This document shows, piece after piece, positions 6,455 to 64,000 of a stretch of 64,000 nt of DNA (position 1 is the first letter of the stretch; every line of letters begins with the position of its first letter). The stretch lies in contig NC_010644.1 of assembly GCF_000020145.1 (NCBI RefSeq), forward strand, positions 186,001 through 250,000, read 5' to 3'. This stretch comes from Elusimicrobium minutum Pei191 (GTDB lineage: Bacteria; Elusimicrobiota; Elusimicrobia; Elusimicrobiales; Elusimicrobiaceae). The notes under the pieces were generated by a model. It did not search any database, was not told where the DNA came from, and was given only the letters and a program-made list of their open reading frames with translations. Position numbers and translations under genes: made by a program.

Positions 6455-6459
6455 TTGTT

Positions 6460-7368: not shown

Positions 7369-7370
7369 AT

Positions 7371-7401: not shown

Positions 7402-7425
7402 GCAATAAAAAAGTTTTTTTACCGT

Positions 7426-7434
7426 TGTTATAAT
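7426..7434 (+). promoter_or_regulatory. Extended -10 promoter of the sigma factor operon
   Basis: TGTTATAAT is an exact extended -10 (TGnTATAAT), 16 bp before the ATG of the ECF sigma gene. No good -35 is visible upstream, as expected for extended -10 promoters. This would give basal housekeeping transcription; no separate ECF-type promoter was identified. Confidence 0.5.
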
Positions 7435-7450
7435 ATAGGGATAGAAATTT

Positions 7451-8041: not shown

Positions 8042-8414
8042 TGAACTTTTTAAATATATGGGAATAAGCCCTGACAGCGGGGAAGCGGAAAAAATAAACG
8101 CCGTTTCTAAGGCTGTGTCTAAAGAATTAAACAAAACTTCTTTAGCTCCTTCACAGGCTGTTATTGACAACATTATGGCAGCGGCTGCAAAGAAAAACAA
8201 ATATGCAATAAAAAATCTGTTTTCGGCGTTTAGTTATAAGACTTTGCTTACTGGCGCTTTAACTGTTTTTATTGTGTTTGCTGTCCCGTATATGTTATCA
8301 AAAAATAGTTTGGGGCGGATAGATACCGACATATACAGTTCGGCGGTTGAAACAAATTTTGATCAATTTGATTCCGATTTAAGCGAAGTTTTGGAATATC
8401 TTGAAACAATATAA
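8031..8414 (+). CDS. Putative membrane anti-sigma factor
   Basis: An ATG at 8031, 6 nt after GGAGG (8020-8024), is chosen over an upstream start because the site fits and it overlaps the sigma gene end by 11 bp (translational coupling). The protein has about 127 residues: a helical cytosolic N-terminus (about 1-70), one transmembrane helix (LLTGALTVFIVFAVPYML, about 80-97) and a short acidic periplasmic tail. Topology and position fit a membrane anti-sigma factor, but no ZAS (HxxxCxxC) motif or named anti-sigma domain is seen, so this role is inferred from context. Confidence 0.6.
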   Translation: MQNDELFKYMGISPDSGEAEKINAVSKAVSKELNKTSLAPSQAVIDNIMAAAAKKNKYAIKNLFSAFSYKTLLTGALTVFIVFAVPYMLSKNSLGRIDTDIYSSAVETNFDQFDSDLSEVLEYLETI

Positions 8415-8426
8415 GGGAGGATAGTT

Positions 8427-9002
8427 ATGAAAAAAATATTAGCGGGCTTTTTTGCAGTATGTTTACTTGCAGTTTTTGTAAACGCCCAGCCTATGGGACA
8501 AGGTTCTAAAAAATATCCCGGCAAGGCAGATATGGAAGGTATGAGAGAGCACTTTAAAAATAAAATGAAAGAAAATAAAGCTCTTCATGAGGAATACGCT
8601 AACGCTAAAACTGACGCTGAAAAGAAAGCGGTTGAAGCTAAAATAAACCAAAAAGTAGCCGAAGAAACGGATGCTGAAATAGCGATGTTCCAAAAACGTC
8701 TTGACGATTCGGAAAAAAAGCTTAAAGAAGCTAAAAAGAAACTTTCCGAAAAGAAGAAAGATAAAAAGAATATAAACCAGAAAAAAGCTGAAATGATAAA
8801 GGAAGGAAACTTTTCTAAATTTGGCAAAGAAAGAAAATGCGATAAAGCCGAATGTTCCGAAGGTAAAGAATGCGGTTGCGATAAAGGCGAACGCAAAAGT
8901 TTTAAAGGTGATTTTAAGGGTCCTAAAGACGGACAGCGCAAAGGCGGTCCCAGAAGTAAAATGAACTCTAAAGCGCCTGAAGTTAAAGTAGAAAATAAAT
9001 AA
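8427..9002 (+). CDS. Secreted highly charged coiled-coil protein with Cys cluster
   Basis: The 191-residue protein starts with a signal peptide (to about residue 20, VNAQ). Next comes a long Lys/Glu/Ala helix (about 30-125) and a tail with four cysteines within about 15 residues (CDKAECSEGKECGCDKG), then a Gly/Lys/Pro-rich disordered end. No family is recognised. Position after the sigma/anti-sigma pair and the general shape recall periplasmic stress-buffering proteins of the Spy/CpxP/CnrX type. The Cys cluster could bind metal or form disulfides. It is probably a regulon output or feedback sensor of the upstream sigma system; this is inference. Confidence 0.6.
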   Translation: MKKILAGFFAVCLLAVFVNAQPMGQGSKKYPGKADMEGMREHFKNKMKENKALHEEYANAKTDAEKKAVEAKINQKVAEETDAEIAMFQKRLDDSEKKLKEAKKKLSEKKKDKKNINQKKAEMIKEGNFSKFGKERKCDKAECSEGKECGCDKGERKSFKGDFKGPKDGQRKGGPRSKMNSKAPEVKVENK

Positions 9003-9023
9003 TGCTTTAAATTGCTTTAATAC

Positions 9024-9055
9024 AAAAATCCCGGAATTATATTCCGGGATTTTTT
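9024..9055 (+). terminator. Terminator of sigma factor operon
   Basis: Perfect stem ATCCCGGAAT / ATTCCGGGAT with a 3-4 nt loop and a T run (TTTTTT), 22 bp after the last gene. Confidence 0.88.
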
Positions 9056-9193
9056 ATTGTGCCGTGAAAAGTTTTCGCGTAAGCTTAAAGATTGGCAGTT
9101 TTATTTCTACGCCGCCTGCGCTTTAACCATGCATAAGGAAATATTGTTTTGTTATTTTAGAGCAATCGAAAAAGTAAAGTTTTAAAACAAGAA

Positions 9194-9213
9194 ACCCCGG
9201 GCTTGGCCCGGGG
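9194..9213 (-). terminator. Terminator after glyS
   Basis: On the minus strand CCCCGGGC-CAA-GCCCGGGG forms an 8-bp GC stem followed by TTTCTTGTTTT. It lies 28 bp after the glyS stop. Confidence 0.8.
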
Positions 9214-9240
9214 AGTTTTGTATTTGTTAAAACGAAACAG

Positions 9241-11304: not shown

Positions 11305-11305
11305 A

Positions 11306-12163
11306 TTATTTGATAACCTCGGGTTCGACAGCCTTTATATACTCGGTAGCGCAAAGTTTGGCAAGCGAGCGTATTTTTGCAATTATGTTAGTACGGTCGG
11401 ACACGCTTATAGCGCCGCGAGCTTCTAACATATTAAAGTAATGTGATACTCGCATAGCGCATTCATAAGCAGGAAGGTACAAGCCCATAGAACAAAGACG
11501 TTTACATTCTTCCTCATTTTCTTCTACGTAGCGTCTTAAATGTTCAATGTTAGCCTGTTCAAAATGATAGCGGGAAAATTGTTTTTCGCCTTCTAAAAAT
11601 AAATCCCCGTAAGAGCGGGTATTATTCCACATAATGCCATAAACATTATCTTTCTTTTGGGAATACATGGCTATACGCTCAAGCCCGTAAGTAATTTCAA
11701 CTGTTATGGGGTTAAGGGCATAACCGGCCATATTTTGGAAATAAGTAAATTGTGTAACTTCCATACCGTCAAGCCAAACTTCCCAGCCCACGCCGCTTGC
11801 GCCCAATGTAGGGGACTGCCAGTCATCCTCAACCCAGCGTACGTCATGTTCTTTGGGGTCAAGGCCTATAGCTTTAAGTGAGTTAAGGTAAAGTTCCTGA
11901 ATATTTGAAGGCGCCGGTTTTATTATTACCTGAAACTGGTAATATTTGCCTAATCTGTTAGGGTTTTCGCCGTATCTTCCGTCCGCGGGTCTGCGGCATG
12001 GTTCAGCGTAAGCGGCCGAGGTCGGCTTTGAAGTGAGCGACCCGTAAAATGTATAGGGGCTGAAGGTAGCCGCGCCTTTCTCCACATCATACGGCTGTCC
12101 TACTATACAACCCTGTTTTTTCCAATAATCTTGTAATGTAAATATTATATCTTGAAAGTTCAT
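11306..12163 (-). CDS. glyQ: Glycyl-tRNA synthetase alpha subunit
   Basis: The 285-residue protein begins with the very conserved FQDIIFTLQDYWKKQGC. It shows the class II motifs of bacterial GlyQ, including the YAEPCRRPADGRYGENPNR stretch (motif 2 region, about residues 50-70) and YQFQVIIKP. It catalyses glycine activation as partner of GlyS. The ATG is preceded by no Shine-Dalgarno; a TAAAAT box (12171-12176 on the minus strand) ends 7 nt before it, so the transcript may be leaderless. Confidence 0.97.
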   Translation of the reverse strand: MNFQDIIFTLQDYWKKQGCIVGQPYDVEKGAATFSPYTFYGSLTSKPTSAAYAEPCRRPADGRYGENPNRLGKYYQFQVIIKPAPSNIQELYLNSLKAIGLDPKEHDVRWVEDDWQSPTLGASGVGWEVWLDGMEVTQFTYFQNMAGYALNPITVEITYGLERIAMYSQKKDNVYGIMWNNTRSYGDLFLEGEKQFSRYHFEQANIEHLRRYVEENEEECKRLCSMGLYLPAYECAMRVSHYFNMLEARGAISVSDRTNIIAKIRSLAKLCATEYIKAVEPEVIK

Positions 12164-51276: not shown

Positions 51277-51279
51277 CTA
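51221..51279. repeat. Long imperfect hairpin at end of the radical-SAM-type gene
   Basis: CTAGTATCTAT (51234-51244) pairs with ATAGATACTAG (51259-51269), extended by AGATTAG and CTAATCT outside an asymmetric bulge. No T run follows on either side. It could end transcription, cap a small RNA or serve as a recombination or protein site. Confidence 0.55.
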
Positions 51280-52101
51280 GAATATGTTTGATTGACCTAC
51301 AGAACATACACATTGTTTAGGAGAATTAGAACAGTATGTAGGCTCAGTTACAGTTCCTTCCTTAATGTGATACTGTTTCTTATTTTTCTTACAGAATGTG
51401 ACTACCTTATCTGCCAGTTCATTAAAGAAATTTTTATAATCCTTATACTCAGATACCTGCTTGTTGTAGTTAAGTCTACCAAATATAATTTTATCTACAA
51501 ATGATAACTCTTCCAGTATCTCATCAAAGTTTTGGTCAATTATGTTGGGTGTAGGGTACGGCTCAATACTAACCCATGTTTTAAACCCTTTGTTGTGCAG
51601 ATGGCGTAAAGAATCTATCCTCTTGCTCATAGGTGATGCAAATGGTTCCAGTTTCTTTCTAAATTTATCCTGTATTGTAATTAAGGTTATGCCAAACTCA
51701 TTGTCTTTGCTCAGGTTAGCTAACTCTATAGGCAAAATACCCTTAGTTAAAGCGGTGCACCTAATACCACTCTTATTTAGTTTATCTATAATCTTCAGGC
51801 TCATCTCAGATACTTCTGGGTATTTATACATGAAAGGGTCTGTAGTAAAAGAAAGATGGACAAATTTTATTTTATCTTTGAGCCTAGGTATTTCTCGGTC
51901 AAGTATTTCTAAAGAATTTTCCACTAATTTAGGTTCAAGCCAGTCTTCATAGGTTTTAATCTTGCCAAACCTTTTAGCCATAAGCATAGCATAGCACGGG
52001 TATAAACATCCATGGGAGCAGTTTTCCGCATGATTGATGGTATAATCCCCATACTCAACGCCAGTCTTATATAGAAGTGTCTTTCTTTTAAATTTTTTCA
52101 T
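51277..52101 (-). CDS. SPL-like radical-SAM-type three-Cys protein, partner of TcmP
   Basis: The 274-residue protein has an N-terminal cysteine motif NCSHGCLYPCYA (Cys 28, 32, 36). A TIM-barrel-like pattern follows (FVHLSFTTDPFMYKYPE, ALTKGILPIELA, FGITLITIQD, TWVSIEPYPTPN) as in spore-photoproduct-lyase-like radical SAM proteins. The three Cys are spaced CX3CX3C, one residue more than the canonical CX3CX2C. Three further Cys lie near the C-terminus (YCSNSPKQCVC), which may hold another cluster. It starts 4 bp after tcmP, so the pair is one operon. TcmP proteins are known to occur beside three-Cys-motif proteins; the reaction is not known. Confidence 0.8.
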   Translation of the reverse strand: MKKFKRKTLLYKTGVEYGDYTINHAENCSHGCLYPCYAMLMAKRFGKIKTYEDWLEPKLVENSLEILDREIPRLKDKIKFVHLSFTTDPFMYKYPEVSEMSLKIIDKLNKSGIRCTALTKGILPIELANLSKDNEFGITLITIQDKFRKKLEPFASPMSKRIDSLRHLHNKGFKTWVSIEPYPTPNIIDQNFDEILEELSFVDKIIFGRLNYNKQVSEYKDYKNFFNELADKVVTFCKKNKKQYHIKEGTVTEPTYCSNSPKQCVCSVGQSNIF

Positions 52102-52105: not shown

Positions 52106-53155
52106 TTATACTTTATTGTATATAATTTCTATTCTATTATCGCGCTTATCATTGATGTAGAGGCTCTTTCCCTTGCGCTTGCAATTAGGCAATTCTTTTA
52201 TACAAACAGTTTTATCATCCTCAAGTTTGCTAAATATTTCATTTGTATATTTTGGCAGCATACCAAGACTTATAGAAAGTTCATACAGTTGTGAATTTGT
52301 TATAGGGTCAGCATTTTTTATTGTGTTTATTAGGGTGTCTGCTTCTTCTTTAAAAGTATCATAAGTCATGGAAAACAAATCACCCTGCTTATCAAAATAC
52401 TTTTCTGCCGCTTCTGCCGCATACAGAAATTTTTCTGCTCCCTTTATATTTTTTGATAGGAAGAATATAACATGCTGGGAGTTGCAGTCCTTATTCTTTA
52501 AACTTTTATAATAGGCAAAATGGGTTCTCATCTTACTCTGAAAAGCACTTCTTATGAGTTGTGCAAAGTCTTCAAGAGTATCGCATTCCTGAGCTTGCTC
52601 CTTAGCAATATCAAAATATTCCAAAAATTGAGCAACGGGCCTGTAGTAAACGTCTTCTTCCTCTCCCTTTAAAAACCTAAAAACATGGTACAGCGGGATG
52701 AAAATAAGAATTTCCAATTTGTCTCTATTAAAAATGTTGTCATAGGTATCTTTATTTAACTGAGTATATCCGAAAGGGTCAATAAAAAGTAAAGCATGCC
52801 CTTTAAACTTTAAAGACTTATTTATAAAAGAGTTGGCGTCCTCATTCGCAATTTTAATAAAAGGGTTATTTGCAACATCTACATTTTTTGACAGAAGTGG
52901 TATTTTTTTAGAATCCAAGTCGTTTAACAGCAAAAGAATTTTTTGGGATTGTAATGGTTTGATAGCATCTACAGCTACCATGGCACTCCCCTTCCCTCCA
53001 TCTTCCGCTACCCCTTGCCCTGCAAACGGTTCTATTACGCTGACATTTGTGGCCCAGTCTTGCGTGTTCATTATTGGGAGATATGCCTTTAGGTACTCCT
53101 CATATATTTTTAGTTTAAGTTTTGTGTGAAATTTGATTTTGCCAGATGTGTCCAT
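52106..53155 (-). CDS. tcmP: Three-Cys-motif partner protein TcmP
   Basis: The 349-residue protein matches the TcmP family pattern. An early HTKLKLKIYEEYLKAYLP is followed by a methyltransferase-like motif I VIEPFAGQG (about 40-48), LNDLDSKK (about 80) and LLFIDPFGYTQL (about 122-133), which takes the place of the DPPY of adenine methylases. C-terminal helices (about 230-320) and a basic end follow. The fold resembles a SAM-dependent methyltransferase, but the catalytic tetrapeptide is DPFG. The family is named only for its partnership with three-Cys proteins, and its function is not established to my knowledge. It is first of two genes, divergent from the type III R-M operon. Confidence 0.85.
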   Translation of the reverse strand: MDTSGKIKFHTKLKLKIYEEYLKAYLPIMNTQDWATNVSVIEPFAGQGVAEDGGKGSAMVAVDAIKPLQSQKILLLLNDLDSKKIPLLSKNVDVANNPFIKIANEDANSFINKSLKFKGHALLFIDPFGYTQLNKDTYDNIFNRDKLEILIFIPLYHVFRFLKGEEEDVYYRPVAQFLEYFDIAKEQAQECDTLEDFAQLIRSAFQSKMRTHFAYYKSLKNKDCNSQHVIFFLSKNIKGAEKFLYAAEAAEKYFDKQGDLFSMTYDTFKEEADTLINTIKNADPITNSQLYELSISLGMLPKYTNEIFSKLEDDKTVCIKELPNCKRKGKSLYINDKRDNRIEIIYNKV

Positions 53156-53191
53156 GTTCTTTTACCCCCAAAAGATAAATACTATAATTTA

Positions 53192-53219
53192 ATTATATCA
53201 CATCTCCCAAAACTGTCCA
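53192..53219 (-). promoter_or_regulatory. Promoter of the tcmP operon
   Basis: On the minus strand TGGACA (53214-53219), 16 bp, then TATAAT (53192-53197), leaving a leader of about 30 nt. Its -35 lies 10 bp from the -35 of the mod promoter, back to back. Confidence 0.65.
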
Positions 53220-53229
53220 GATATTTTAT

Positions 53230-53257
53230 TTGAACATTAATTTATATTTGATAGAAT
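53230..53257 (+). promoter_or_regulatory. Promoter of the mod-OLD-res operon
   Basis: TTGAAC (53230-53235), 16 bp, then TAGAAT (53252-53257), 29 bp before the mod ATG. It is divergent from the tcmP promoter, so one bound regulator or the methylation state of this region could affect both. Confidence 0.5.
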
Positions 53258-53286
53258 GAAATATACACATTGGGCAAGAGGGTACT

Positions 53287-55257
53287 ATGGCAGACAAATT
53301 TAATAAAGAATCTTTAAATATAACAGAAGAAAAGCTAACTCAGTTTAAACAACTATTCCCAGAAGTTTTTAGTGAGGGCAAGGTGGACTTTGAACGCCTT
53401 AAGCTTACCCTTGGGGAACACACTGCAATATCTAATGAACGCTACGTGCTAAACTGGGCTAACAAGAGTGATGCCTTTACCGCCATACAAACCCCAACAA
53501 CCAAAACCCTTTACCCTGCCGTCAAAGAATCAGTCAATTTTGATACCACTCAAAATGTGTTTATAGAGGGTGAGAACCTGGAAGTGTTAAAGATACTCCA
53601 AAAGTCCTACTTTGGCAAAATTAAGATGATATACATTGACCCGCCCTATAACACTGGCAATGACAATTTTATTTACCCAGACAAATTTGCCGAAACTAAA
53701 GAAGAGTACCTTAAAAAAATTAAAGAAAAAGATGAAGAGGGCTACCTGCTAAAAGAAGGCCTCTTCCGCAAAAACTCCAAAGAAAACGGGCAGTTCCACA
53801 GCAACTGGCTTAACATGATGTATCCCAGACTGTTCCTAGCTAAAAACCTGCTTAAAGACGATGGTGTTATTTTTGTGTCCATAGATGACAATGAGGTGCA
53901 TAACCTGCGCCTGTTAATGAATGAAGTGTTTGGAGAAGATAATTTCAAAGCAATTTTCCCCAGAGTTACCAAAAAGGGTGGGAAGTCCTCAGAAGCAACC
54001 GCCAAGAACCATGACTACGTCTTGATGTATTCAAAAAATAATTCTTTTGCAGATATTATAGGGATAGCACATAATGATGATGGTTATAGTAACCAGGATG
54101 AGTTTTTCGAAGAAAGGGGATTTTATAAATTAAATCAGACCCTAGATTATGATTCTTTGGGATGGGTAAAGTCTCTTGACTACCCAATAGAAATTGGAGA
54201 GCATGTTTACTATGCTGGCGGGTCAAAGGAGAAATATGAAGAGCGGCATAGTGGCAAGCACGGACGTGCGGACTGGGGATGGAGATGGAGTAAAGACCTA
54301 TTTGAGTTTGGTTTTAGTAACGGCTTTGTTGAATTAAAAGACTCTGGGAGTAGACCTAGGATATATACAAAAACTTACCAGAATGTAAAAATTGAGAAGG
54401 TCGGCAATAAATATGAAATTATAAACATAGACCGCTCAAAGCCTTTGTCAACACTTGAGTTTATTGAAAATAAATACTCCAACGATAATGCTACAAAGGT
54501 GATTGACGGCGTTATTGGGAAAGGCATTTTTGAATACACTAAGCCTCCAGAACTCATATCACAATTAGCACATTTAATAAATGAAAAAGATTTCTTTGTT
54601 TTGGACTTTTTTGCGGGTTCTGGTACTACTGCTCAGGCTGTAATGGAGTTAAATAAAGAAGACGGTGGGAAGAGAAAATTTATTTGTGTTCAACTGCCAG
54701 AAAAAACAGAAGAGACCTCAGAAGCTTTTAGGGCAGGATACAAAACTATATCAGAAATAAGTGCTGAGCGTATACGCCGTGCCATCAAAAAAATAGAAAC
54801 AGAAACTAAAGCAGATAATACCATGTTTAAGGCCGAAGGCAAGCTGGACCTTGGGTTCAAGTTTTATAAATTAAAAGAATCTAACTTTAAAACATGGCGC
54901 AGTGATATGGTGTCCACTAAAGAAGACCTGGCAACCACTATCAATATGTTTGAAGACGCATTAAAGGACGGTGCAAAAGAAACCAATATTTTATGTGAAC
55001 TATTGCTAAAACGGGGCTATGACCTTAACGTCCCTGTGGAAACAGCGGAAGTGGACAAAACCAAAATATACATAGTTAACAACGGGGAGCTGGTGGTATG
55101 CCTGGAGAAACTGTCAGACAAAGTTATATCCAAAATACTAGAGATTAAGCCCCAAAGGTGTTTAATGCTAGATAGTTTATTTGACGGCAAAGACAGCTTA
55201 AAAACCAACACCGTCTTACAACTCCAAGACGCAGAAATAGACCTAACGGTGGTATGA
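53287..55257 (+). CDS. mod: Type III restriction-modification methyltransferase subunit (Mod)
   Basis: The 656-residue protein has DPPYNTGND (motif IV, residues 118-126) before FFAGSGTTAQAV (SAM motif I, about 441), the order of the beta class of N6-adenine methyltransferases to which type III Mod enzymes belong. The variable middle (about 220-420) should hold the target recognition domain. Mod methylates one strand of the site and is needed for cleavage by Res. The expected partner res lies two genes downstream, separated by an OLD-family gene. The next ATG is 1 nt after this stop. Confidence 0.95.
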   Translation: MADKFNKESLNITEEKLTQFKQLFPEVFSEGKVDFERLKLTLGEHTAISNERYVLNWANKSDAFTAIQTPTTKTLYPAVKESVNFDTTQNVFIEGENLEVLKILQKSYFGKIKMIYIDPPYNTGNDNFIYPDKFAETKEEYLKKIKEKDEEGYLLKEGLFRKNSKENGQFHSNWLNMMYPRLFLAKNLLKDDGVIFVSIDDNEVHNLRLLMNEVFGEDNFKAIFPRVTKKGGKSSEATAKNHDYVLMYSKNNSFADIIGIAHNDDGYSNQDEFFEERGFYKLNQTLDYDSLGWVKSLDYPIEIGEHVYYAGGSKEKYEERHSGKHGRADWGWRWSKDLFEFGFSNGFVELKDSGSRPRIYTKTYQNVKIEKVGNKYEIINIDRSKPLSTLEFIENKYSNDNATKVIDGVIGKGIFEYTKPPELISQLAHLINEKDFFVLDFFAGSGTTAQAVMELNKEDGGKRKFICVQLPEKTEETSEAFRAGYKTISEISAERIRRAIKKIETETKADNTMFKAEGKLDLGFKFYKLKESNFKTWRSDMVSTKEDLATTINMFEDALKDGAKETNILCELLLKRGYDLNVPVETAEVDKTKIYIVNNGELVVCLEKLSDKVISKILEIKPQRCLMLDSLFDGKDSLKTNTVLQLQDAEIDLTVV

Positions 55258-55258: not shown

Positions 55259-56995
55259 ATGAAAATTAAAAATGTCCATATTCATAACTTTAGGTCCATA
55301 CTAGATGCCGATTTCCCCTTGGAATCATATTCCATACTTGCGGGAGAAAATAATTCAGGAAAGACAACTTTTATTAATGCTTTACGAGTTTTTTATGAAG
55401 ATATAAAATTTAACAAGGCAGAAGACTTTCCTAAAATGGAAACATCTGATGTAGAGTCTTGGATAGAGGTTGAGTTCATAACTGTACAAGAAGAGCAAGA
55501 CTTATTAAAAGAAGAATATAGAAGTGCAGACAAGATACTAAGGGTTAGAAAGTATCTAGCATCCTCCTCTATAGAAATAAAGTCAACTCAAAGTAATATC
55601 TATGGGTACGAAAATGGTGTTTTGTCTACCACGCTCTTCTATGGTGCTAAAAATATATCCCAAGCAAAGTTGGGTAATATTTTGTATATCCCAGAGTTAA
55701 GTCGCACCGAAGAAGTTATGAATTTATCAAAAGCAGCGTCTCCATTAAAAAGCATTGTAGAATATGTTCTTGGTAAGATATTAAAAGCAAGTTCTTCTTT
55801 TTCTGAGCTAAATAAGGCCTTTGAGGTGTTTAACAAAGAATTCCAAGCAGAAAGTTCCCCAGAGGGATTATCTATTAACAAAATGAAAGAGGATATAAAC
55901 TCTGAGCTTAAAGACTGGGGTGTTAGTTTGGGTATAAATATCAATGCGGTCTCTCCAGAAGTTATAACAAAAAATCTCCTCTCTCATTATTTGCAGGATT
56001 CTAAGCTGGGTGAACAGGAGATAAACACAAGCAGTGTCGGGCAAGGGCTTCAGAGACACATTATTTATTCTTTAATAAAAATAGCATCTAAATACCAAGA
56101 CCCTAAAGAAATTAAAAAGAAAGATTTTTCTCCAGATTTTACGCTCATTTTATTTGAAGAGCCTGAAGCCTTTTTACATCCGTCGCAACAACAGATTTTA
56201 AACATAGATTTAGAGAGTATTGCTAAGGGAGATAATGAGCAAGTAATAGCAACTACACATTCCCCAATATTTGTTTCTAAAAATATAAACAATTTGCCCT
56301 CACTAATAAGATTGAGTAGGGAAGAGCGAAATAAATGGGAAACCAAAAGTTTTAATATTTCTAAAGAAAAACTGGAATTATTGCTGTCAGATAATGCGGG
56401 GCTTGAAGCCTGCTTCAAAAGCACTGTCGCCTTACCTGCTTGTCAAGAAGAACTGAAGAAAGCTTTGGCAAAATCTCTGGCCTCGGGTACATTGGAAGGT
56501 TTTTCTGGAAGTGATAAGGAAATTATGAATATTTGCATGTGGCTTGACACAGAACGAGCAAATGCTTTTTTTTCAAAACATGTAATAATATGTGAGGGGG
56601 CAACAGAAAAAGTTCTATTAGAGTATTTATTTGCAACGCATTGGAAAGATTTTGCTAAAAAACACATATATTGTCTGGATTCTTTAGGTAAGTTTAACAT
56701 ACATAGATTTATAAACTTATTTGATTCCCTAGGAATATATCATTCTGTTGTTTATGATTCAGATAACAATCGTGGTGTTCATGAAATAGTTAATAAATTT
56801 ATTCAGAGTAAAAAAAGTGCGTACACACAAAACCTGTTAGCCTTATCTGGCGATGTTGAGTCTGAATTTGGGATTACTAAGCCAGCTAATACGCATTTGA
56901 AACCTGCTAACTTATTGTTGCATTTAATTAAAAATAAAATTACCCAGAAACAAATAGACTCCTTTAAGGAGAAGTTTAATTATCTTTCTATATAG
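55259..56995 (+). CDS. OLD-family ATPase with TOPRIM nuclease domain, inside the type III R-M operon
   Basis: The 578-residue protein has an N-terminal ABC-type ATPase: Walker A GENNSGKTTF (29-38), signature region SVGQGLQRHIIYSL (about 260), Walker B LILFEEPEAFLHP (about 295-307) and the H-loop ATTHSPIFVS. The C-terminal TOPRIM has VIICEGATEK (acidic Glu, about 445) and VVYDSDNNRG (DxD, about 500). This is the OLD (overcoming lysogenization defect) nuclease layout, known in anti-phage systems such as P2 Old and Gabija GajA. It is not a normal part of type III R-M. Gaps of 1 and 6 nt to its neighbours show co-translation with mod and res. No GajB-type helicase is beside it. Confidence 0.85.
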   Translation: MKIKNVHIHNFRSILDADFPLESYSILAGENNSGKTTFINALRVFYEDIKFNKAEDFPKMETSDVESWIEVEFITVQEEQDLLKEEYRSADKILRVRKYLASSSIEIKSTQSNIYGYENGVLSTTLFYGAKNISQAKLGNILYIPELSRTEEVMNLSKAASPLKSIVEYVLGKILKASSSFSELNKAFEVFNKEFQAESSPEGLSINKMKEDINSELKDWGVSLGININAVSPEVITKNLLSHYLQDSKLGEQEINTSSVGQGLQRHIIYSLIKIASKYQDPKEIKKKDFSPDFTLILFEEPEAFLHPSQQQILNIDLESIAKGDNEQVIATTHSPIFVSKNINNLPSLIRLSREERNKWETKSFNISKEKLELLLSDNAGLEACFKSTVALPACQEELKKALAKSLASGTLEGFSGSDKEIMNICMWLDTERANAFFSKHVIICEGATEKVLLEYLFATHWKDFAKKHIYCLDSLGKFNIHRFINLFDSLGIYHSVVYDSDNNRGVHEIVNKFIQSKKSAYTQNLLALSGDVESEFGITKPANTHLKPANLLLHLIKNKITQKQIDSFKEKFNYLSI

Positions 56996-57001: not shown

Positions 57002-59665
57002 ATGAAACTACATTTTGATGCTAAGCAGCCGTACCAGCAAGACGCTATGCGGGCTATAATAGACGTGTTTAAAGGGCAACCTATAAATAATGGGGACTTT
57101 GAAGCGTCTTTTGGTGGCGTGGATGGGCTGGCACTATCTATAATGGGTGTTAAGAATAATATTGTACTTTCAGAAGAACAAATTTTAAAAAATGTGTGTG
57201 AAGTGCAAGAAAAAAATGGCCTAGATATTGCCACTAAACTGGAAGGGCTAAACTTCACCATAGAAATGGAAACAGGTACAGGTAAAACCTATGTTTACCT
57301 TAGAACCATTTATGAGCTGAACAAACAGTACGGCTTTAAAAAATTTGTGATTGTGGTGCCCAGCATAGCCATAAAAGAAGGTGTGTTAAAAAACCTGGAA
57401 ATTACGCATGAGCACTTCCAAGGTTTGTATGAAAACACTTCAGTAAAATTTCAGGTTTACGACTCTGCTAAAGTATCTGCCCTGCGTGGGTTTGCTGATA
57501 GTAATAACATTGAAATACTTGTTATAAACATAGACTCATTTGCCAAGGATGAAAACGTTGTAAATAATGAAAACGATAAACTGACTGGCAAAAAACCAAT
57601 AGAGTTTATTCAGGCTACTAACCCCATAGTTATTGTGGACGAACCGCAAAATATGGAAACTGAAATACGTAAGCGTGCCATAGCAAGACTTAACCCTGCT
57701 TGCACGTTAAGATACTCCGCCACGCATAAAAACATGTATAACCTGCTTTATAGTTTGGACCCTGTTAAAGCCTATGACCTAGGGCTTGTTAAACAGATAG
57801 AAGTGGATAGCGTGATAACAGAAAACGACCATAACAGGGCATTTATTGAACTGGTGGAATTTAAACAAAATAAAAACAGTGTGTTGGCTAAAGTTAAGAT
57901 TGAGTGTGAGAGCCCCTCTGGCGTTAAGTCAAAGGTGGTAACCATAGGCGCAGATGAAAAGTATGACCTCTACCAACTTTCTGGACAGCGTGAAATATAC
58001 AAAGATAATTTTGTGCCAATATCTTTAGACGCTGGGGAAGGCTTTGTGGAGTTTGGCAATGGCTTAAGAGTATCTCTGGGACAAAGCAACAGCCAAGTGA
58101 AAGATGACATAATGAAAACGCAGATAGAGCGCACCATAGCCGAACATTTAGCCAAAGAAAAACAACTGCGCCCACAAGGCATTAAAGTATTGTCTTTGTT
58201 TTTTATTGATAGAGTGGCAAACTATAGGGCCTGGGATGAAAGTGGAAACATTGTGGAAGGCAAAATACACAAATGGTTTGAAGAAATTTATAAAAATATT
58301 GTCAGTAAATCTGGCAATAGCAACATTATGAGCCAGGATATAAAAGAGATACATAATGGCTATTTCTCCCAAGATAAAAAGGGACACCTGAAAGACTCCT
58401 CAGAGAGCAGGGAAACAAAAGACGATGCTGATACATACCAGCTTATTATGAAAGATAAGGAACGCTTGCTGGATGTTAATAATCCCCTGCGCTTTATATT
58501 TAGCCACTCTGCCCTTAGGGAAGGCTGGGACAACCCTAATGTGTTTCAGATATGCACGTTAAATGAAACCAGGTCTGAAATGAAAAAGAGGCAAGAAATA
58601 GGCCGTGGATTACGCCTTGCTGTTAATGCAGATGGTATGCGAATTTATGACAAAAGTATAAATAAACTAACAGTTGTAGCTAACGAAACTTATGCCGATT
58701 TTTCCGCAAACTTACAAAAAGAAATAGAAGATGATTGCGGTGTGGCCTTCCAGGGTAGGATTAAAGATAAAAGAGCAAGAAAGAAGGTGGGCCTTAAGAA
58801 AGGATTTGAACTGGATGCTAAATTTATTGAACTCTGGGACAAGATTAAACACAAAACTACGTATAAGGTGGACTATGACTCCCAGGACCTTATAAAAGCC
58901 GCAGGAAAGGCCTTGAGGGACCTGGAAACAGAGATAAAAGCCCCTATCATCAGAACTGTTAAAACTGGCGTCAATATAACTAGCGAAGGCGTATTTGGGA
59001 CCGTTAAAGGCAGCACAACAAAGGCTATGGCAGCTGGTTTTGAGATACCTAATATCATTGACTATATACAAAGCAGGCTTAGCTCCAAATTAACCCGTAA
59101 AACTATATTGGAAATTATCAAGGCCTCTGGCAGGATGGAGGATGTATTAAAGAACCCACAAATGTTTTTAGACCTAGCTATAGGCAAAATAAACAATGTA
59201 ATGAATGAGCTTATGGTAGACGGCATTAAATATGAAAAGATAGCAGGGCAAGAATGGCAGATGCTTTTGTTTAAGGAACAGGAGATAGAGTCTTATATTG
59301 AAAACCTGTACCCTATCAAGAACCAGGATAAGACAATAGCGGATAGCATTGTTATTGATTCCTTATCCAGCCCCGAGCGTCAGTTTGCCGAAGATTGCGA
59401 GAATAATGATAACGTGGACTTTTTTATAAAACTACCCGACTGGTTTAAAATAAGAACGCCAATGGGCACTTATAATCCAGACTGGGCGTTAATCTACAAA
59501 AATGATAAGAGGATATACTTTGTAGCAGAAACAAAATCTACCCTATCACTGGATAGATTGCGAACGGAAGAGCAGTTAAAAATAAAGTGTGGTAAGGCAC
59601 ATTTTAAAGACTTTAAAGATGTTGAATTTAAGCACGTTACGAAAGTGGGTGATTTAATTTCTTAA
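57002..59665 (+). CDS. res: Type III restriction enzyme helicase-nuclease subunit (Res)
   Basis: The 887-residue SF2 enzyme has Walker A METGTGKTYVYLRT (about 88), DExx box VIVDEPQNME (about 209), SALREGWDNPNVF (motif V) and RQEIGRGLRLAV (motif VI, about 528). The C-terminal PD-(D/E)xK nuclease reads YNPDWALIY and FVAETKS (about 822-846). Res translocates or slides after recognising two unmethylated sites and cuts DNA with Mod. Both catalytic parts look intact, so restriction is probably active. It is last of the three-gene operon. Confidence 0.95.
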   Translation: MKLHFDAKQPYQQDAMRAIIDVFKGQPINNGDFEASFGGVDGLALSIMGVKNNIVLSEEQILKNVCEVQEKNGLDIATKLEGLNFTIEMETGTGKTYVYLRTIYELNKQYGFKKFVIVVPSIAIKEGVLKNLEITHEHFQGLYENTSVKFQVYDSAKVSALRGFADSNNIEILVINIDSFAKDENVVNNENDKLTGKKPIEFIQATNPIVIVDEPQNMETEIRKRAIARLNPACTLRYSATHKNMYNLLYSLDPVKAYDLGLVKQIEVDSVITENDHNRAFIELVEFKQNKNSVLAKVKIECESPSGVKSKVVTIGADEKYDLYQLSGQREIYKDNFVPISLDAGEGFVEFGNGLRVSLGQSNSQVKDDIMKTQIERTIAEHLAKEKQLRPQGIKVLSLFFIDRVANYRAWDESGNIVEGKIHKWFEEIYKNIVSKSGNSNIMSQDIKEIHNGYFSQDKKGHLKDSSESRETKDDADTYQLIMKDKERLLDVNNPLRFIFSHSALREGWDNPNVFQICTLNETRSEMKKRQEIGRGLRLAVNADGMRIYDKSINKLTVVANETYADFSANLQKEIEDDCGVAFQGRIKDKRARKKVGLKKGFELDAKFIELWDKIKHKTTYKVDYDSQDLIKAAGKALRDLETEIKAPIIRTVKTGVNITSEGVFGTVKGSTTKAMAAGFEIPNIIDYIQSRLSSKLTRKTILEIIKASGRMEDVLKNPQMFLDLAIGKINNVMNELMVDGIKYEKIAGQEWQMLLFKEQEIESYIENLYPIKNQDKTIADSIVIDSLSSPERQFAEDCENNDNVDFFIKLPDWFKIRTPMGTYNPDWALIYKNDKRIYFVAETKSTLSLDRLRTEEQLKIKCGKAHFKDFKDVEFKHVTKVGDLIS

Positions 59666-60227: not shown

Positions 60228-60233
60228 GTGGAA

Positions 60234-61418
60234 ATGGCAAAGCAAAAAGAAGAAATAGGGGTGTTTAAAAAGGTGGCGGTTTTTCCTAGAAGAATTATTA
60301 AACATGTTGGCAAATATTACCCATTTGACCCTGATAATCCTTCAGGCTCCCTTTGGGAAATGGAGCTATATCTGGCATTGCTAATTGTTTCCAAGGATAA
60401 TCTGTACCCTTATCTTTCTTTTCCGTACGATTTGTTAATGAGGGATTTTAAAAGATATCTATATCATATGTTAGCAACTCGGCTTCTTTCTGTTACCGTG
60501 GCTACTCAGTTTGTTGCTAAGACTTATGCCGAGCTTGAAAAATATAAAAAAGAGGGGGGACCGACAGAAAAGATTGTCCACATCTGGTATAAAGACAAAT
60601 ATTATTTTATGGACTTCTTGGACAGATACCTTAGAGCGTATGAAAAAGGAGTATTTGACGGAGAGTATAATAGTAAAAATTATAGTACTAAATTAAGTTT
60701 GCGAGCAACAGTTAATCTCCTCAAGGCATACAGTAAAGTGCATGGAAGTAAATTTACCTTGAGGCCAGAATGGGAAGATATAGATGGTAAACTTTTGAAG
60801 GTTGACCCCAGAAGTAGGGTAATGACAGATTTGTTGTTACTGGAAAATAAAAGGTTAATTTCCATTAGCAGAGTGAGTGCAGATGATTTTGAGGAGTGGT
60901 GCAAACCTCGTATTGTAATGGTTAAGGATATGAAAATAAGAGCTAACATAGAGCTGCTTAAACCTATTGAAGAAATTGAGAAAGAAATTTTTGAGGTTAA
61001 GGCAGAAAAAGGGTTCCTCGGGCTAGTTGTAAATGAAGAGAACGAAGTTTTTTATAATGGCACAAAGATTAAAGCATTTTCATCCTCGGCAGAGCAACAA
61101 ATAGGCTTATTAAAACTTCTTATATCCAAAAAAGGTGTTGCCGCTACCAGAGAGGCAGTATACTCTGCTTTGGGTTATACTATGAAAAGCAAAAAAGCTC
61201 CCAAACGCCATAATGAATATGATGATGGCTATGATGAAATAGAAGGTACATATAAACGTGGTCCCAAAATAAACAAAAGAGAGGCGTTTAGAGATAGATT
61301 AAAAAAACTTATAAAAGAGGTTCAGTCTAAACTTCCCGACGGTAGTGTGATAATTAAGAACACAGAAAAAGAAGGTGTTTTTATAGTTTCAGGGGAGACC
61401 AAGGTATCCCATAAGTAA
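60234..61418 (+). CDS. Mobile-element protein with winged-helix-like C-terminus
   Basis: The ATG at 60234 (8 nt after GGAGG) is preferred to a GTG at 60228, which is too close to the site. The protein has about 394 residues and no signal or membrane segment. Its helical N-terminal two thirds are unrecognised. The C-terminus (about 275-390: VFYNGTKIKAFSSSAEQQIG, GVAATREAVYSAL, FRDRLKKLIKEVQSKL, then a final hairpin EKEGVFIVSG) follows the pattern of OmpR-type winged-helix DNA-binding domains. It may regulate or initiate element functions. It has its own terminator. Confidence 0.6.
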   Translation: MAKQKEEIGVFKKVAVFPRRIIKHVGKYYPFDPDNPSGSLWEMELYLALLIVSKDNLYPYLSFPYDLLMRDFKRYLYHMLATRLLSVTVATQFVAKTYAELEKYKKEGGPTEKIVHIWYKDKYYFMDFLDRYLRAYEKGVFDGEYNSKNYSTKLSLRATVNLLKAYSKVHGSKFTLRPEWEDIDGKLLKVDPRSRVMTDLLLLENKRLISISRVSADDFEEWCKPRIVMVKDMKIRANIELLKPIEEIEKEIFEVKAEKGFLGLVVNEENEVFYNGTKIKAFSSSAEQQIGLLKLLISKKGVAATREAVYSALGYTMKSKKAPKRHNEYDDGYDEIEGTYKRGPKINKREAFRDRLKKLIKEVQSKLPDGSVIIKNTEKEGVFIVSGETKVSHK

Positions 61419-61445
61419 CATTTAAGTTCTAGCTATACAATAGAC

Positions 61446-61477
61446 CGTTTAAGGATAAAACCTTAAGCGGTTTTTTT
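61446..61477 (+). terminator. Terminator after the winged-helix-like gene
   Basis: CCGTTTAAGG / CCTTAAGCGG stem (one G-T pair) with an ATAAAA loop and seven T residues. Confidence 0.88.
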
Positions 61478-61567
61478 ATTGTATCCCTGTCAAATCTCCC
61501 CGTTTTCCTCCCTCTTTTTTAGAGGGAAAAGTGATTTTTGTTCCCACTAGTTGAATTGGTTTCTTTT

Positions 61568-61602
61568 CCTTACTGCTTCGCACAAAGCGAAAGCCAGTAA
61601 GG
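61568..61602 (+). promoter_or_regulatory. Hairpin overlapping the ribosome binding site of the replication gene
   Basis: CCTTACTG (61568-61575) pairs with CAGTAAGG (61595-61602), and the inner CTTCGC pairs with GCGAAAG. The AAGGAG site (61599-61604) for the ATG at 61613 lies partly inside the 3' arm, so folding would hide it. Confidence 0.6.
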
Positions 61603-61612
61603 AGCCACAACA

Positions 61613-62683
61613 ATGGACAGAATCAAAATAGCAGTACCAGTAGCAGAAGTAAAAGAATTATACACGGGAGCAATAACGGCCTTGCAAGATAACAGAGATA
61701 AAGGCCCCGCAATACAGCCCGTTTTTAGAGACTATAGTTGGTGCGGATATATAATGATTGATATTTGCGTGCCTAAAAGTTTGTTTCATAATAGCTTGGA
61801 GGAGCATACAGATAGATGTTTAAACTGTTTGATTGAACTTATAAGAATTGAAGCACGGGAATCTAATGGGCTGGAAATATCACATGACGCTATAAAATTT
61901 GCTGAAGTCTGGTATCTTGAGTACGGCAAAAATATAGTTATTCCCAAAAGACACTCCATGCATGCTTGTCTAGACAAAATTGCCTTGACACTTGCAGGGC
62001 AACACCCAACCCTTTCCAAGGTTAAATATTATTCTAGGGTGGGTAATAATGGCTATCAGGTGGGGCTCCACACAAAAGAATATGAAATTTGTGCCTACGA
62101 TAAGACCACAGCCGCTATCTATAATGGCACAGGGAACGATAAGGAGATTTTCAAAGACTTGTTAGATAGGCACAATTTACAAGTTTTAAGGGTGGAAGTT
62201 AAATTATTCAAGAGCAAGTATATTAAAAAGCATTTAGGGAAGTTGAAATATATGCACAGCTTCAAATTATTTGACTTGTTTAATTCCATCCTTGAACAGC
62301 GAGCCCTAAAGCATTTTTGGGCAGCGATTGAGGATGCTCTACCTAAAGTAAAATACTCCAAAGTGGCCTTGATAAAGCAAATAGATGCTGCTGCCAAGAA
62401 CGATGTCAGTATTAACGATATTATTTTTAAAGTAGGCATGGATTATTTAGAGCACTCTTTGGGGAGGACGGTATTAAAACAGCTTTTAGTACCAACCTCA
62501 GCCAAGATAAAAGGTAAGGCAAGAGAATCACAACATAGCACGTTGTTGAAGAAGCGGAAGGAAATACAGAAAAAATTCAAGACCAAAAAGTTTTATATTG
62601 CCAGTAGAATAAATAACTATCTTAATGAGTTTAAACCCATTTGGATAGACAAGGAAAATGACGACATTGAGGGGGTAATGTGA
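61613..62683 (+). CDS. Gene II-like rolling-circle replication initiation protein
   Basis: The 356-residue protein resembles the phage/plasmid replication protein (gene II/X, Phage_CRI) family. Features are a beta-rich N-terminal part with WCGYIMIDICVPKS, the central HSMHACLDKIAL, EICAYDKTTAAIYN, and the conserved LQVLRVEVKLFKSKYIKKHL (about 183-202), plus a basic C-terminus. Such proteins nick one strand at the origin through a tyrosine; I cannot assign the catalytic Tyr. The similarity call is moderate. Its start codon is under a hairpin, and its stop overlaps the next small gene by 1 nt. Confidence 0.7.
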   Translation: MDRIKIAVPVAEVKELYTGAITALQDNRDKGPAIQPVFRDYSWCGYIMIDICVPKSLFHNSLEEHTDRCLNCLIELIRIEARESNGLEISHDAIKFAEVWYLEYGKNIVIPKRHSMHACLDKIALTLAGQHPTLSKVKYYSRVGNNGYQVGLHTKEYEICAYDKTTAAIYNGTGNDKEIFKDLLDRHNLQVLRVEVKLFKSKYIKKHLGKLKYMHSFKLFDLFNSILEQRALKHFWAAIEDALPKVKYSKVALIKQIDAAAKNDVSINDIIFKVGMDYLEHSLGRTVLKQLLVPTSAKIKGKARESQHSTLLKKRKEIQKKFKTKKFYIASRINNYLNEFKPIWIDKENDDIEGVM

Positions 62684-62847
62684 TGAGCACTAGCCTCCCT
62701 GAAAATGCAAACTCTACGCAAAAAGCCATATTCAAAGATTATGGTGTAGTGGTAACGGAAGAAGAAGCCTTTGAAATTAAAAGAAGTCTTATCGGTTTAA
62801 TCAGGTTGCTTGACAAAGTTGACCGAGAGCTGGGGCCAGAATCATAA
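62683..62847 (+). CDS. Small protein coupled to the replication gene
   Basis: This 54-residue frame starts with ATG sharing one base with the replication gene stop (TGATG), a sign of translational coupling. The sequence is soluble and helical in its second half (EEEAFEIKRSLIGLIRLLDKV). No family is recognised. Position suggests a replication accessory or copy-control protein of the element, but this is inferred only from context. Confidence 0.6.
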   Translation: MSTSLPENANSTQKAIFKDYGVVVTEEEAFEIKRSLIGLIRLLDKVDRELGPES

Positions 62848-62865
62848 TATAAGCAATAAAAAACC

Positions 62866-62894
62866 TTGACTAGCGGTGTATTCTATTGTAAACT
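62866..62894 (+). promoter_or_regulatory. Promoter of the excisionase-like gene with repeat over the -10
   Basis: TTGACT (62866-62871), 17 bp, then TAAACT (62889-62894). The near-repeat CTATTGTAAA (62883-62892) and CTATTGTTAA (62893-62902) covers the -10 and start point and could be an operator. The predicted start is close to the ATG at 62904, and no Shine-Dalgarno is visible. Confidence 0.5.
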
Positions 62895-62903
62895 ATTGTT
62901 AAT

Positions 62904-63083
62904 ATGAAAAACACACAATTTTTTACCATAGAAGAGGTTGCAGAACTTCTTAAAGTCAGTGAAATGACTATATACCGCTATATCAAGGCCAGGAAACTTA
63001 CCGCCTACAAATTAGGGCGAAAGGCTTACCGTATAAACAATACCGACTTAAAAGCCTTCTTAAATAAAGTAAAAACAAAATAG
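62904..63083 (+). CDS. Excisionase/MerR-like helix-turn-helix protein
   Basis: The 59-residue protein is a single HTH_17/excisionase domain: FTIEEVAELLKVSEMTIYRY, then the wing with KLTAYKLGRKAYRINNTDLK. Proteins of this type act as excisionases (recombination directionality factors) or small regulators on integrative elements. It stands 8 bp before the serine recombinase, so it probably controls the direction of recombination or recombinase expression. Confidence 0.85.
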   Translation: MKNTQFFTIEEVAELLKVSEMTIYRYIKARKLTAYKLGRKAYRINNTDLKAFLNKVKTK

Positions 63084-63091
63084 GAACTTTT

Positions 63092-64000
63092 ATGAAAAAT
63101 TATATAGCGAAAAAAGCAGTCATTTTATCAAGAGTATCAAGCTCTTCACAAGAAGACGGGCAATCTCTGGACGCTCAGCTTGAAAAAACACGTGAATATA
63201 GCAAACAAAAAGCTTTTAAAGTATTGAAAGAATACAGGATAATAGAGTCTTCTACAAGAGGTAATCGTACAGAGTTTAATGAAATGTTGGATTTTGTTAA
63301 AGCACAAAAAGAAGCTATTGCAATAATTGTTTATAACGTAGACCGTATGCAAAGAAGATTTAATGAGTCTGTATCTTTGGAGCCTCTTATAAAAAAAGGG
63401 AAATTAGAGCTGCATTTTGTAACTACGGGGCTAGTACTTCATAAAGATTCCCCTGCAAGTGACTTTATGGTCTGGGATTTTAATGTTGTGGGTGCAAGGT
63501 CTTATGTGCTAATGCTTTCGGAAAGCACAAAACGTGGGGTGTCTCGCAAAATTTCTCTTGGACAGCTTCCAGGACGTGCTCCTATTGGATATAAGAACAT
63601 AGGCACAGGTAAGAACAAGACTATTGTTATAGATGAGCTTATCGCTCCCATACTAAAAGAGGTATTTGAAATGCACGCTACTGGCAACTACTCATTATTA
63701 GAGCTTGTGAGGGTATTTAACCAGAAGTGCAAGGAAATAGGCTGTGGTAAAAAAACGTCTAAAAATCCTTTATGGCGTGCCTTTCGCAATCCTTTTTACT
63801 ATGGGGTAATGAAAATAAAAGGACTGGAGTTCCCGCATATTTATGAACCATTAATTACTAAAGAACTATTTGATAGAAACCAAGCCGTAATAAGAGGACA
63901 TAAAAGGCAGAATACAAAATGTGCCTGTAAAGAAAACGTGTTTAGGGGTATAGTTAAATGTAAAGATTGCGGAACTATTATAAGCCCTTATACCAAAGAT
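63092..64000 (+). CDS. Large serine recombinase, 3' end outside window
   Basis: The frame is open from an ATG at 63092 to the window end (303 residues). The N-terminal resolvase domain has ILSRVSSSSQEDGQSLDAQ (catalytic Ser about residue 16 in RVS) and NVDRMQRRF (about 84). A recombinase domain follows (LPGRAPIGYKNIG, NPFYYGVM, about 165-250) and the start of a zinc ribbon (VKCKDCGTI), as in phage and conjugative-element integrases. It should integrate and excise the element at att sites. The C-terminal zinc ribbon and coiled coil lie beyond the window. Confidence 0.92.
   Translation, partial: MKNYIAKKAVILSRVSSSSQEDGQSLDAQLEKTREYSKQKAFKVLKEYRIIESSTRGNRTEFNEMLDFVKAQKEAIAIIVYNVDRMQRRFNESVSLEPLIKKGKLELHFVTTGLVLHKDSPASDFMVWDFNVVGARSYVLMLSESTKRGVSRKISLGQLPGRAPIGYKNIGTGKNKTIVIDELIAPILKEVFEMHATGNYSLLELVRVFNQKCKEIGCGKKTSKNPLWRAFRNPFYYGVMKIKGLEFPHIYEPLITKELFDRNQAVIRGHKRQNTKCACKENVFRGIVKCKDCGTIISPYTKD

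What the first reader, a model, noticed from the sequence alone, without database searches (positions are those of the whole stretch)
55259..56995. OLD-family ATPase/TOPRIM nuclease embedded between Mod and Res
Type III R-M is normally two genes. Here a 578-aa OLD-type protein with intact Walker A, Walker B and TOPRIM acidic residues is translated between them with gaps of 1 and 6 nt. This suggests a fixed three-component system, for example a backup nuclease set off when restriction is blocked or when Res creates DNA ends. No GajB-type helicase is present, so it is not an ordinary Gabija locus.
Basis: partly seen in the sequence, partly recalled or inferred. Interest (0 to 1): 0.7.

Follow-up and report, generated by a model that had tools for sequence, protein, structure and literature searches.

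The report
Swappable nuclease inside restriction operon
Between the two genes of a bacterial DNA-restriction system sits a gene for an OLD-type nuclease, and comparison with relatives shows that this gap is an exchange slot: near-identical restriction systems carry quite different anti-virus genes there, so the nuclease looks like a swappable second line of defence and not a fixed third part.

Summary
Intact Mod (53287-55257), OLD (55259-56995) and Res (57002-59665) genes lie on one strand with gaps of 1 and 6 nt, and no GajB-type gene is adjacent. The OLD protein fits Class 1 best: PADLOC 'Old' 181 bits against GajA 113; nearest fold T. scotoductus OLD. All catalytic residues are present.

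The 'fixed three-component system' is not supported. Relatives of this OLD occur in many phyla, mostly without R-M genes. Some sit inside type III or type I R-M operons, in every order. R-M is the immediate neighbour about 10-fold more often than for other genes in the same loci, but the type III-linked OLDs are scattered over the tree (AU test rejects one clade, p 6e-6).

The better description lies on the R-M side. In this Res subfamily 17 of 18 mod/res pairs hold extra genes, and the contents differ: OLD, RloC-type anticodon nuclease, ATPase+TOPRIM (DUF4276) pair, Schlafen/AlbA, GmrSD, YhcG/DUF1016 and others. Two Res proteins 89% identical carry unrelated cargo, with DNA homology stopping at the mod stop and restarting at the res ATG. 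I read OLD as an interchangeable, co-transcribed, autonomous back-up module. The function is inferred; embedded defence genes are a known theme.

The parts
53156..53286 (.). intergenic region between the divergent tcmP and mod genes; likely promoter region of the mod-OLD-res unit
   Evidence: Consensus-like sites at 53161-53188 (+, 10/12) and 53219-53192 (-, 11/12); no comparable + strand site in the 3' end of mod or in the OLD-res gap. Consensus only, not proof.
53287..55257 (+). Mod, type III N6-adenine methyltransferase/specificity subunit, 656 aa
   Evidence: Pfam N6_N4_Mtase 108 bits; PADLOC MTase_III PDLC03634 617 bits; DPPY and FAGSG motifs
55259..56995 (+). OLD-family ABC ATPase + TOPRIM protein, 578 aa, Class 1-like; the cargo of the mod-res slot
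   Evidence: Pfam AAA_15 and OLD-like_TOPRIM; PADLOC Old 181 bits against best GajA 113; AlphaFold2 pLDDT 90.2; best PDB fold match 6p74 T. scotoductus OLD E 2e-23; GC3 0.288 against 0.397 Mod and 0.394 Res
55340..55375 (+). Walker A of OLD (GENNSGKTT; K35)
   Evidence: invariant K35 in 51 relatives
56144..56185 (+). Walker B and D-loop of OLD (LILFEEPEAFLHP; E300, E301, H307)
   Evidence: invariant in 51 relatives
56582..56620 (+). TOPRIM motif 1 of OLD (VIICEGATEK; E446, E450)
   Evidence: invariant in 51 relatives; aligns with T. scotoductus E377/D381 (alignment; residue roles from PMC7049728)
56744..56770 (+). TOPRIM motif 2 of OLD (VVYDSDNN; D500, D502)
   Evidence: invariant in 51 relatives; corresponds to T. 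scotoductus D431/D433
57002..59665 (+). Res, type III restriction subunit (SF2 helicase + PD-(D/E)XK), 887 aa, of a short-Res subfamily whose mod-res gap nearly always holds cargo
   Evidence: Pfam ResIII and RE_endonuc; PADLOC REase_III 958 bits; motifs intact; subfamily survey

Best explanation
This is a complete type III restriction-modification operon whose mod-res junction is an exchange slot. The slot here holds a Class 1-like OLD ATPase/TOPRIM nuclease. Shown: the slot is precise (homology stops at the mod stop codon and restarts at the res start codon) and its contents turn over much faster than Mod and Res. Inferred: OLD is translated from the mod-res transcript as an autonomous second layer, held inactive until a phage gets past the R-M layer, and then cleaves nucleic acid (phage DNA ends or host RNA) so that the infection fails. 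The likeliest trigger, by homology, is unprotected or phage-shielded DNA ends or RecBCD antagonism sensed through the ABC ATPase, as for P2 Old and Gabija. Subjective step probabilities: exchange slot 0.9; autonomous co-expressed defence module 0.65; DNA-end/RecBCD-type trigger 0.35.
For: (1) Swap: Res of L109 and L111 are 89% identical, yet the gap holds a Schlafen/AlbA protein in one and an AAA_21+DUF4276 pair in the other; homology ends 13 nt before the mod stop and resumes at the res ATG. Window against its nearest Res relative L136 (73%): homology ends 16 nt before the mod stop and resumes 1 nt before the res ATG, with OLD replaced by an RloC-type gene carrying a CxxC zinc hook and an R-x3-E-x38-H triad. 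L137 (68%) has a 2-nt gap and no cargo. (2) In this subfamily 17 of 18 mod/res pairs have cargo, against 15 of 79 more distant pairs, Fisher p 2e-9. (3) Cargo kinds are mostly known or candidate defence families. (4) OLD has lower GC3 than its neighbours, consistent with separate origin. (5) Relatives of this OLD also stand alone, including on plasmids and in viral contigs, so it can persist without R-M. (6) R-M is the immediate neighbour 10-fold more often than for other genes in the same loci. (7) Literature: P2 Old is activated by RecBC inhibition, and a 2026 paper cites tRNA cleavage (PMC13261556); Gabija is licensed by RecBCD antagonists (PMC12407980); TgvAB embedded in a type I R-M protects against phages on its own (PMC11411939).
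Against: No function was measured. The cargo set includes RloC and an ATPase+TOPRIM pair resembling PARIS, which fits a guard that senses R-M inhibition as well as an autonomous module. Some cargo (ParB_N protein, 139- to 350-aa proteins without Pfam match) has no known defence role. The subfamily survey is weighted to one phylum, and its counts were assembled from mechanically called ORFs. Co-transcription rests on gap lengths and absence of an internal consensus promoter only.
Confidence: 0.62

Rival explanations
1. Guard model (PrrC-like): OLD is held silent by direct contact with the Mod-Res complex and is released when a phage anti-restriction protein binds or dismantles that complex.
For: The nearest R-M relative carries an RloC-type gene with zinc hook and anticodon-nuclease triad in the same slot. 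L110/L111 carry an ATPase+TOPRIM pair scoring to HEC-01 and AriA models. PrrC is silenced by its linked type Ic R-M and released by T4 Stp (PMC2610378). PARIS is triggered by the anti-restriction protein Ocr (PMC12409363).
Against: Cargo proteins without common structure share the slot and the same OLD clade pairs with both type I and type III systems in every gene order, so no conserved Mod/Res interface is evident. Many relatives stand alone. RloC itself is only rarely linked to R-M (8/73).
Confidence: 0.22
2. Fixed three-component enzyme: Mod, OLD and Res form one machine and OLD processes ends made by Res.
For: Gaps of 1 and 6 nt; similar triplets in L049/L050 (gaps 5 and 5) and reordered in L020.
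Against: Not monophyletic (AU p 6e-6); the closest R-M relatives lack OLD; L137 has no cargo at all; OLD itself occurs with type I systems or alone.
Confidence: 0.06
3. Neutral nesting: OLD landed in the operon by defence-island shuffling and has no functional link to R-M beyond shared inheritance.
For: Stand-alone relatives are the majority; the cargo is diverse; a serine recombinase lies downstream.
Against: Precise replacement at stop/start codons without polar damage to res; 17/18 occupancy in one subfamily; 10-fold excess of R-M neighbours over the local background.
Confidence: 0.1
4. Divergent Gabija (Class 2 OLD) that lost GajB.
For: GajA models score above 100 bits; GajA structures are the next-best fold matches.
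Against: The Old model scores higher (181 bits); the nearest fold is TsOLD; only 76 residues follow the DxD motif against about 140 in GajA; the outgroup GajA sequences fall outside the clade; no GajB-type helicase is adjacent here.
Confidence: 0.02

Closest known systems
Class 1 OLD nucleases (P2 Old, T. scotoductus OLD, E. coli YbjD/OldB)
   Same: Domain order, catalytic residues, nearest solved fold, no adjacent helicase
   Different: Class 1 is defined by, and described as, single isolated genes not near other defence genes (PMC10568477, PMC6755086); here and in about a quarter of the sampled relatives the gene lies in an operon with R-M genes
Genes embedded in multi-gene defence systems ('guilt by embedding': HEC and PDC candidates of Payne et al. 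2024; DarTG2 and TgvAB inside type I R-M)
   Same: Co-directional gene inserted between two genes of one defence system; several slot contents here carry these very labels (HEC-01, HEC-05, PDC-S05, PDC-S06)
   Different: Those I could read about concern type I R-M or Hma; here the slot is the mod-res junction of a type III subfamily, with direct evidence of replacement. The Payne preprint itself was not readable here, so overlap cannot be excluded
PrrC/RloC anticodon nucleases in type I R-M loci (rlo genes of C. jejuni)
   Same: R-M-linked ABC ATPase effector; an RloC-type gene occupies the same slot in the nearest relative; RloC linkage to type III noted in 2008 (PMC2610378)
   Different: The effector is a TOPRIM nuclease, not a HEPN anticodon nuclease
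Gabija (GajAB) and PARIS (AriAB)
   Same: ABC ATPase + TOPRIM logic; triggers connected with anti-restriction or RecBCD antagonists
   Different: No GajB; ATPase and TOPRIM fused; sequence and fold nearer Class 1 OLD
Type III restriction-modification (EcoP15I type)
   Same: Mod and Res with all motifs
   Different: Extra gene between mod and res; Res of a shorter subfamily (about 885 aa)

Membership tests
OLD family | N-terminal ABC ATPase plus C-terminal OLD-type TOPRIM in one chain | tested here: met
   Pfam AAA_15 99.6 bits and OLD-like_TOPRIM 61.8 bits; fold match to 6p74 E 2e-23
OLD family | Intact Walker A/B, H-loop and TOPRIM metal ligands | tested here: met
   K35, E300, E301, H307, H334, E446, E450, D500, D502 invariant in 51 sequences; E534, K548 at least 90%
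OLD family | Nuclease and ATPase activity | not testable with these tools
   needs purified protein
Class 1 OLD | No UvrD/PcrA/Rep helicase gene in tandem | tested here: met
   neighbours are Mod and Res
Class 1 OLD | Single, isolated gene | tested here: not met
   1- and 6-nt gaps to mod and res; so it is Class 1-like, not filed as a Class 1 member by context
Class 1 OLD | Lacks the Class 2 C-terminal helical domain | tested here: inconclusive
   only 76 residues after D502, with two helices at 545-557 and 563-577; no residue-level superposition done
Gabija / Class 2 OLD | GajB helicase partner | tested here: not met
   no helicase of that type adjacent; elsewhere in the genome not searched
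Class 3 OLD (retron) | Adjacent reverse transcriptase and ncRNA | tested here: not met
   adjacent genes are Mod and Res, no RT domain; ncRNA not searched
PARIS | AriA sensor/AriB effector sensing Ocr-like proteins | tested here: inconclusive
   AriA ATPase model 98 bits, below Old 181; trigger not testable
Type III R-M | Mod with DPPY and FxGxG; Res with SF2 helicase and PD-(D/E)XK | tested here: met
Type III R-M | Restriction and methylation activity in vivo | not testable with these tools
   needs methylome and transformation assay
Embedded defence gene | Lies between genes of one system on the same strand, in several independent genomes | tested here: met
   window, L049/L050, L020 and type I cases L015, L073, L091
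Embedded defence gene | Anti-phage activity of the embedded gene | not testable with these tools
   no experiment possible
PrrC/RloC guard | Silenced by and released from the linked R-M complex | not testable with these tools
   needs interaction and inhibitor assays

The most novel reading that the evidence does not exclude
A subfamily of type III R-M systems is a general carrier of interchangeable fail-safe effectors: its mod-res junction is a dedicated exchange slot filled with ABC-ATPase-controlled nucleases (OLD, RloC, ATPase+TOPRIM) or other modules that are released when restriction is blocked, which would make R-M-linked OLD a functional class of its own, with the R-M complex as sensor.
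Probability: 0.2. Interest if true: 0.8.

Novelty: new variant of a known kind. Interest (0 to 1): 0.52.

Why it matters
Reviews describe Class 1 OLD proteins as isolated genes away from other defence genes, with little known of their role. Here the same clade is repeatedly tied to type I and type III restriction, which gives a testable context. The mod-res slot offers natural swap experiments: nearly identical restriction enzymes with different cargo, from which one can ask whether restriction systems serve as platforms for fail-safe effectors, and where new defence genes can be found by reading what sits between mod and res.

Tried and rejected
Gabija: rejected (no GajB, Old model and TsOLD fold score higher). 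Fixed triplet: rejected by tree, AU test and relatives of the R-M. Wholly random neighbourhood: rejected by the neighbour control. Phage and viral origin of this OLD: only two viral contigs (L092, L093) and distant phage hits, without R-M neighbours recognised there. Direct repeats marking the element ends or the slot: none convincing. Empty-site search in the same genus: the other two genomes lack the region. Papers on cargo between mod and res: none found in the held library; the Payne et al. 2024 preprint is not held. Not resolved: what the ParB_N, 139-aa and 350-aa cargo proteins do.

Full report
1. What is there. Mod and Res belong to PADLOC type III families with very high scores and keep all motifs. 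OLD has an ABC ATPase and an OLD-type TOPRIM domain. Its best PADLOC model is Old (181 bits, E 1e-53), ahead of GajA (113 bits) and AriA (98 bits). AlphaFold2 gives a confident model (mean pLDDT 90.2, pTM 0.85) whose nearest solved structure is T. scotoductus OLD (E 2e-23, TM 0.54-0.60), then GajA. In 51 relatives the Walker A lysine, Walker B, H307/H334 and the TOPRIM residues E446, E450, D500, D502 are invariant, and E534 and K548 nearly so; E446/E450 and D500/D502 align with the metal ligands reported for T. scotoductus OLD. The third metal-site assignment (E534, K548) is my inference from spacing to P2 Old.

2. Whose genome. The contig is 1,643,562 bases. From memory that is the size of Elusimicrobium minutum Pei191; the name exists in the taxonomy but the identity was not verified.

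3. The OLD side. Only one such gene is in the genome. No close copy exists in 199 related genomes. On plasmids, nine records hold a 35-42% relative; in the six regions I opened it has no R-M gene beside it (in two of them the gene is interrupted). A scan of one genome per species returned 80 loci at 34-50% identity from bacteria and archaea. I called ORFs in the loci and marked R-M genes by BLAST against references whose identity was checked with Pfam. Eleven loci have the OLD in one co-directional run with type III-like Mod/Res genes, eleven with type I Hsd genes, and a few more have R-M genes nearby; Pfam added two loci with a methyltransferase (L042 overlapping OLD, L080 111 nt away) and an HsdS directly upstream in L082. 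The orders vary: Mod-OLD-Res (L049/L050, gaps 5 and 5), Res-OLD-Mod (L020, gaps about 15 and 1), OLD-Mod-Res (L024, L035, L037), Mod-Res-OLD (L057), HsdM-HsdS-OLD-HsdR (L073). As a control I asked how often the immediate same-strand neighbour within 150 nt is an R-M gene: 18 of 78 OLD genes against 23 of 785 other genes in the same loci, odds ratio 9.9, p 9e-10. Loci are not fully independent, so the p-value is approximate.

4. Tree. On a tree of 81 such OLD proteins the type III label (14 rows) needs 13 changes, no better than shuffled labels (271 of 500 as low); type I (12 rows) needs 9. Holding all type III rows as one clade is rejected, p-AU 6e-6 (quick tree of 45 rows). So this clade has joined R-M operons many times, and there is no monophyletic 'R-M OLD'. 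GajA-type outgroups fall outside, though on very long branches.

5. The R-M side. The closest Res relatives were then examined. Most have genes between mod and res, but not OLD. Contents: L136 (Res 73%) and L145, an AAA_13 protein (Pfam 322 bits for L136) with a CxxC zinc hook and an R-x3-E-x38-H triad, the signature published for RloC; L110 and L111, AAA_21 + DUF4276, which score to the HEC-01 candidate and to AriA models; L109, L139, L140 and the 53% relative L146, SLFN_AlbA_2 + HATPase_c_4, and by DNA identity L148; L142, DUF4062 + HATPase_c_4 and others; L112, a ParB_N protein and a second protein; L147, a type IIG enzyme and three others; plasmid loci L150 (YhcG/DUF1016) and L151 (GmrSD/HEC-05); in less related Res, L153 (DUF262) and L115, L156 (RhuM). 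L137 has none.

6. Counting. Among pairs whose Res is at least 50% identical to the window's over its length, or over a fragment (window, L020, L109-L112, L136, L137, L139, L140, L142, L145, L147, L148, L150, L151, L157, L158), 17 of 18 have more than 300 nt between mod and res. Among 79 less related pairs, mostly from viral contigs, 15 do; Fisher p 2e-9. Adjacency is therefore the rule for type III systems at large, and occupancy the rule for this subfamily. The near set is weighted to one phylum, some contigs are near-duplicates, and ORF calls are mechanical.

7. Exchange. Res of L109 and L111 are 89% identical with unrelated cargo. L110 shares the L111 cargo although its Res is more distant (83% to both), and the Res tree groups L109 with L111 (99/99). 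BLASTN shows homology ending 13 nt before the mod stop and restarting at the res ATG. Window against L136: homology up to 16 nt before the mod stop and again from 57001, one base before the res ATG, with OLD against RloC in between. So whole cargo genes are replaced while the flanks stay. OLD also has lower GC3 (0.288) than Mod (0.397) and Res (0.394). In L145 mod and res are split by frameshifts while the RloC-type frame is open; this may be a sequencing error.

8. Mechanism. Shown: intact residues, position, exchange, recurrence. Inferred: co-transcription (short gaps; the best + strand promoter-like site before OLD lies upstream of mod), autonomy (many stand-alone relatives, unrelated cargo kinds in the slot) and a second-layer role. 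From the literature: P2 Old senses RecBC inhibition and a 2025 study is cited for tRNA cleavage (PMC13261556); Gabija is licensed by phage end-binding proteins that keep RecBCD away (PMC12407980); PARIS is triggered by Ocr and its TOPRIM effector cuts tRNA (PMC12409363); PrrC is released when its linked R-M is inhibited (PMC2610378); TgvAB inside a type I R-M protects on its own (PMC11411939). These make two models close rivals: an autonomous back-up, and a guard of the R-M complex. Diversity of cargo and mixing with type I systems favour the first; RloC in the nearest relative favours the second. I put 0.62 on the exchange-slot plus autonomous back-up account as a whole and 0.22 on the guard.

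9. Known or new. Genes embedded in defence systems are known: rlo genes and PrrC in type I loci, DarTG2 (PMC12255303), TgvAB, and the systematic 'guilt-by-embedding' work of Payne et al. 2024, which I could not read and know only through citing papers. RloC next to type III R-M was noted in 2008. What I did not find described in the held library: a mod-res exchange slot in type III systems and a Class 1-like OLD clade tied to R-M; reviews say the contrary for Class 1 (PMC10568477), and Schiltz et al. [quoted passage not shown] I therefore call it a new variant of a known kind.

Noticed in passing
window 51277-52101 (-) and 52106-53155 (-): Divergent from mod lies a radical SAM protein and a three-Cys-motif partner protein TcmP (TIGR04474 121 bits), a pair listed as defence candidate PDC-M30 in PADLOC.
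   Followed up: partly
window 60228-64000 and L228:3493-5052: Downstream of res are two proteins without any Pfam match (396 and 356 aa) and a large serine recombinase (window about 63092-64651), so the R-M island may sit on an integrated element; no terminal repeats were found.
   Followed up: partly
L228:15520-16401 (about window position 75119): Start of a large ORF beginning like Cas9 (GLDLGVGSIGFAIV), suggesting a type II CRISPR locus about 16 kb downstream of res.
   Followed up: no
L145:6359-13322: Relative of this R-M with mod and res split by frameshifts while the RloC-type cargo frame stays open; could be decay or sequencing error.
   Followed up: no
L139:3546-12366 and L140:3078-11592: Two copies of this R-M subfamily with related AlbA cargo in one genome (G339); extra small ORFs and repeated segments in the slot.
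   Followed up: no
L013 and L016, about 3000-11740: HsdR-HsdM-AIPR(AbiU)-OLD arrangement: a type I R-M run with two further defence-like genes.
   Followed up: no
L113:3615-12112: Mod-Res of a more distant subfamily followed within 25 nt by a complete Gabija (GajA-GajB) pair.
   Followed up: partly
L035:2532-2840, L036, L037 and L012: A small XRE-type HTH gene (102-103 aa) adjoins OLD in several relatives: just upstream, overlapping by 4 nt, in L035, L036 and L037, and 5 nt downstream in L012; a possible regulator.
   Followed up: no
window 54037-54516 (middle of mod): The presumed target-recognition part of Mod lacks DNA homology to L136 and L137 while both ends align at 67-79%, as expected for exchange of specificity.
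   Followed up: no
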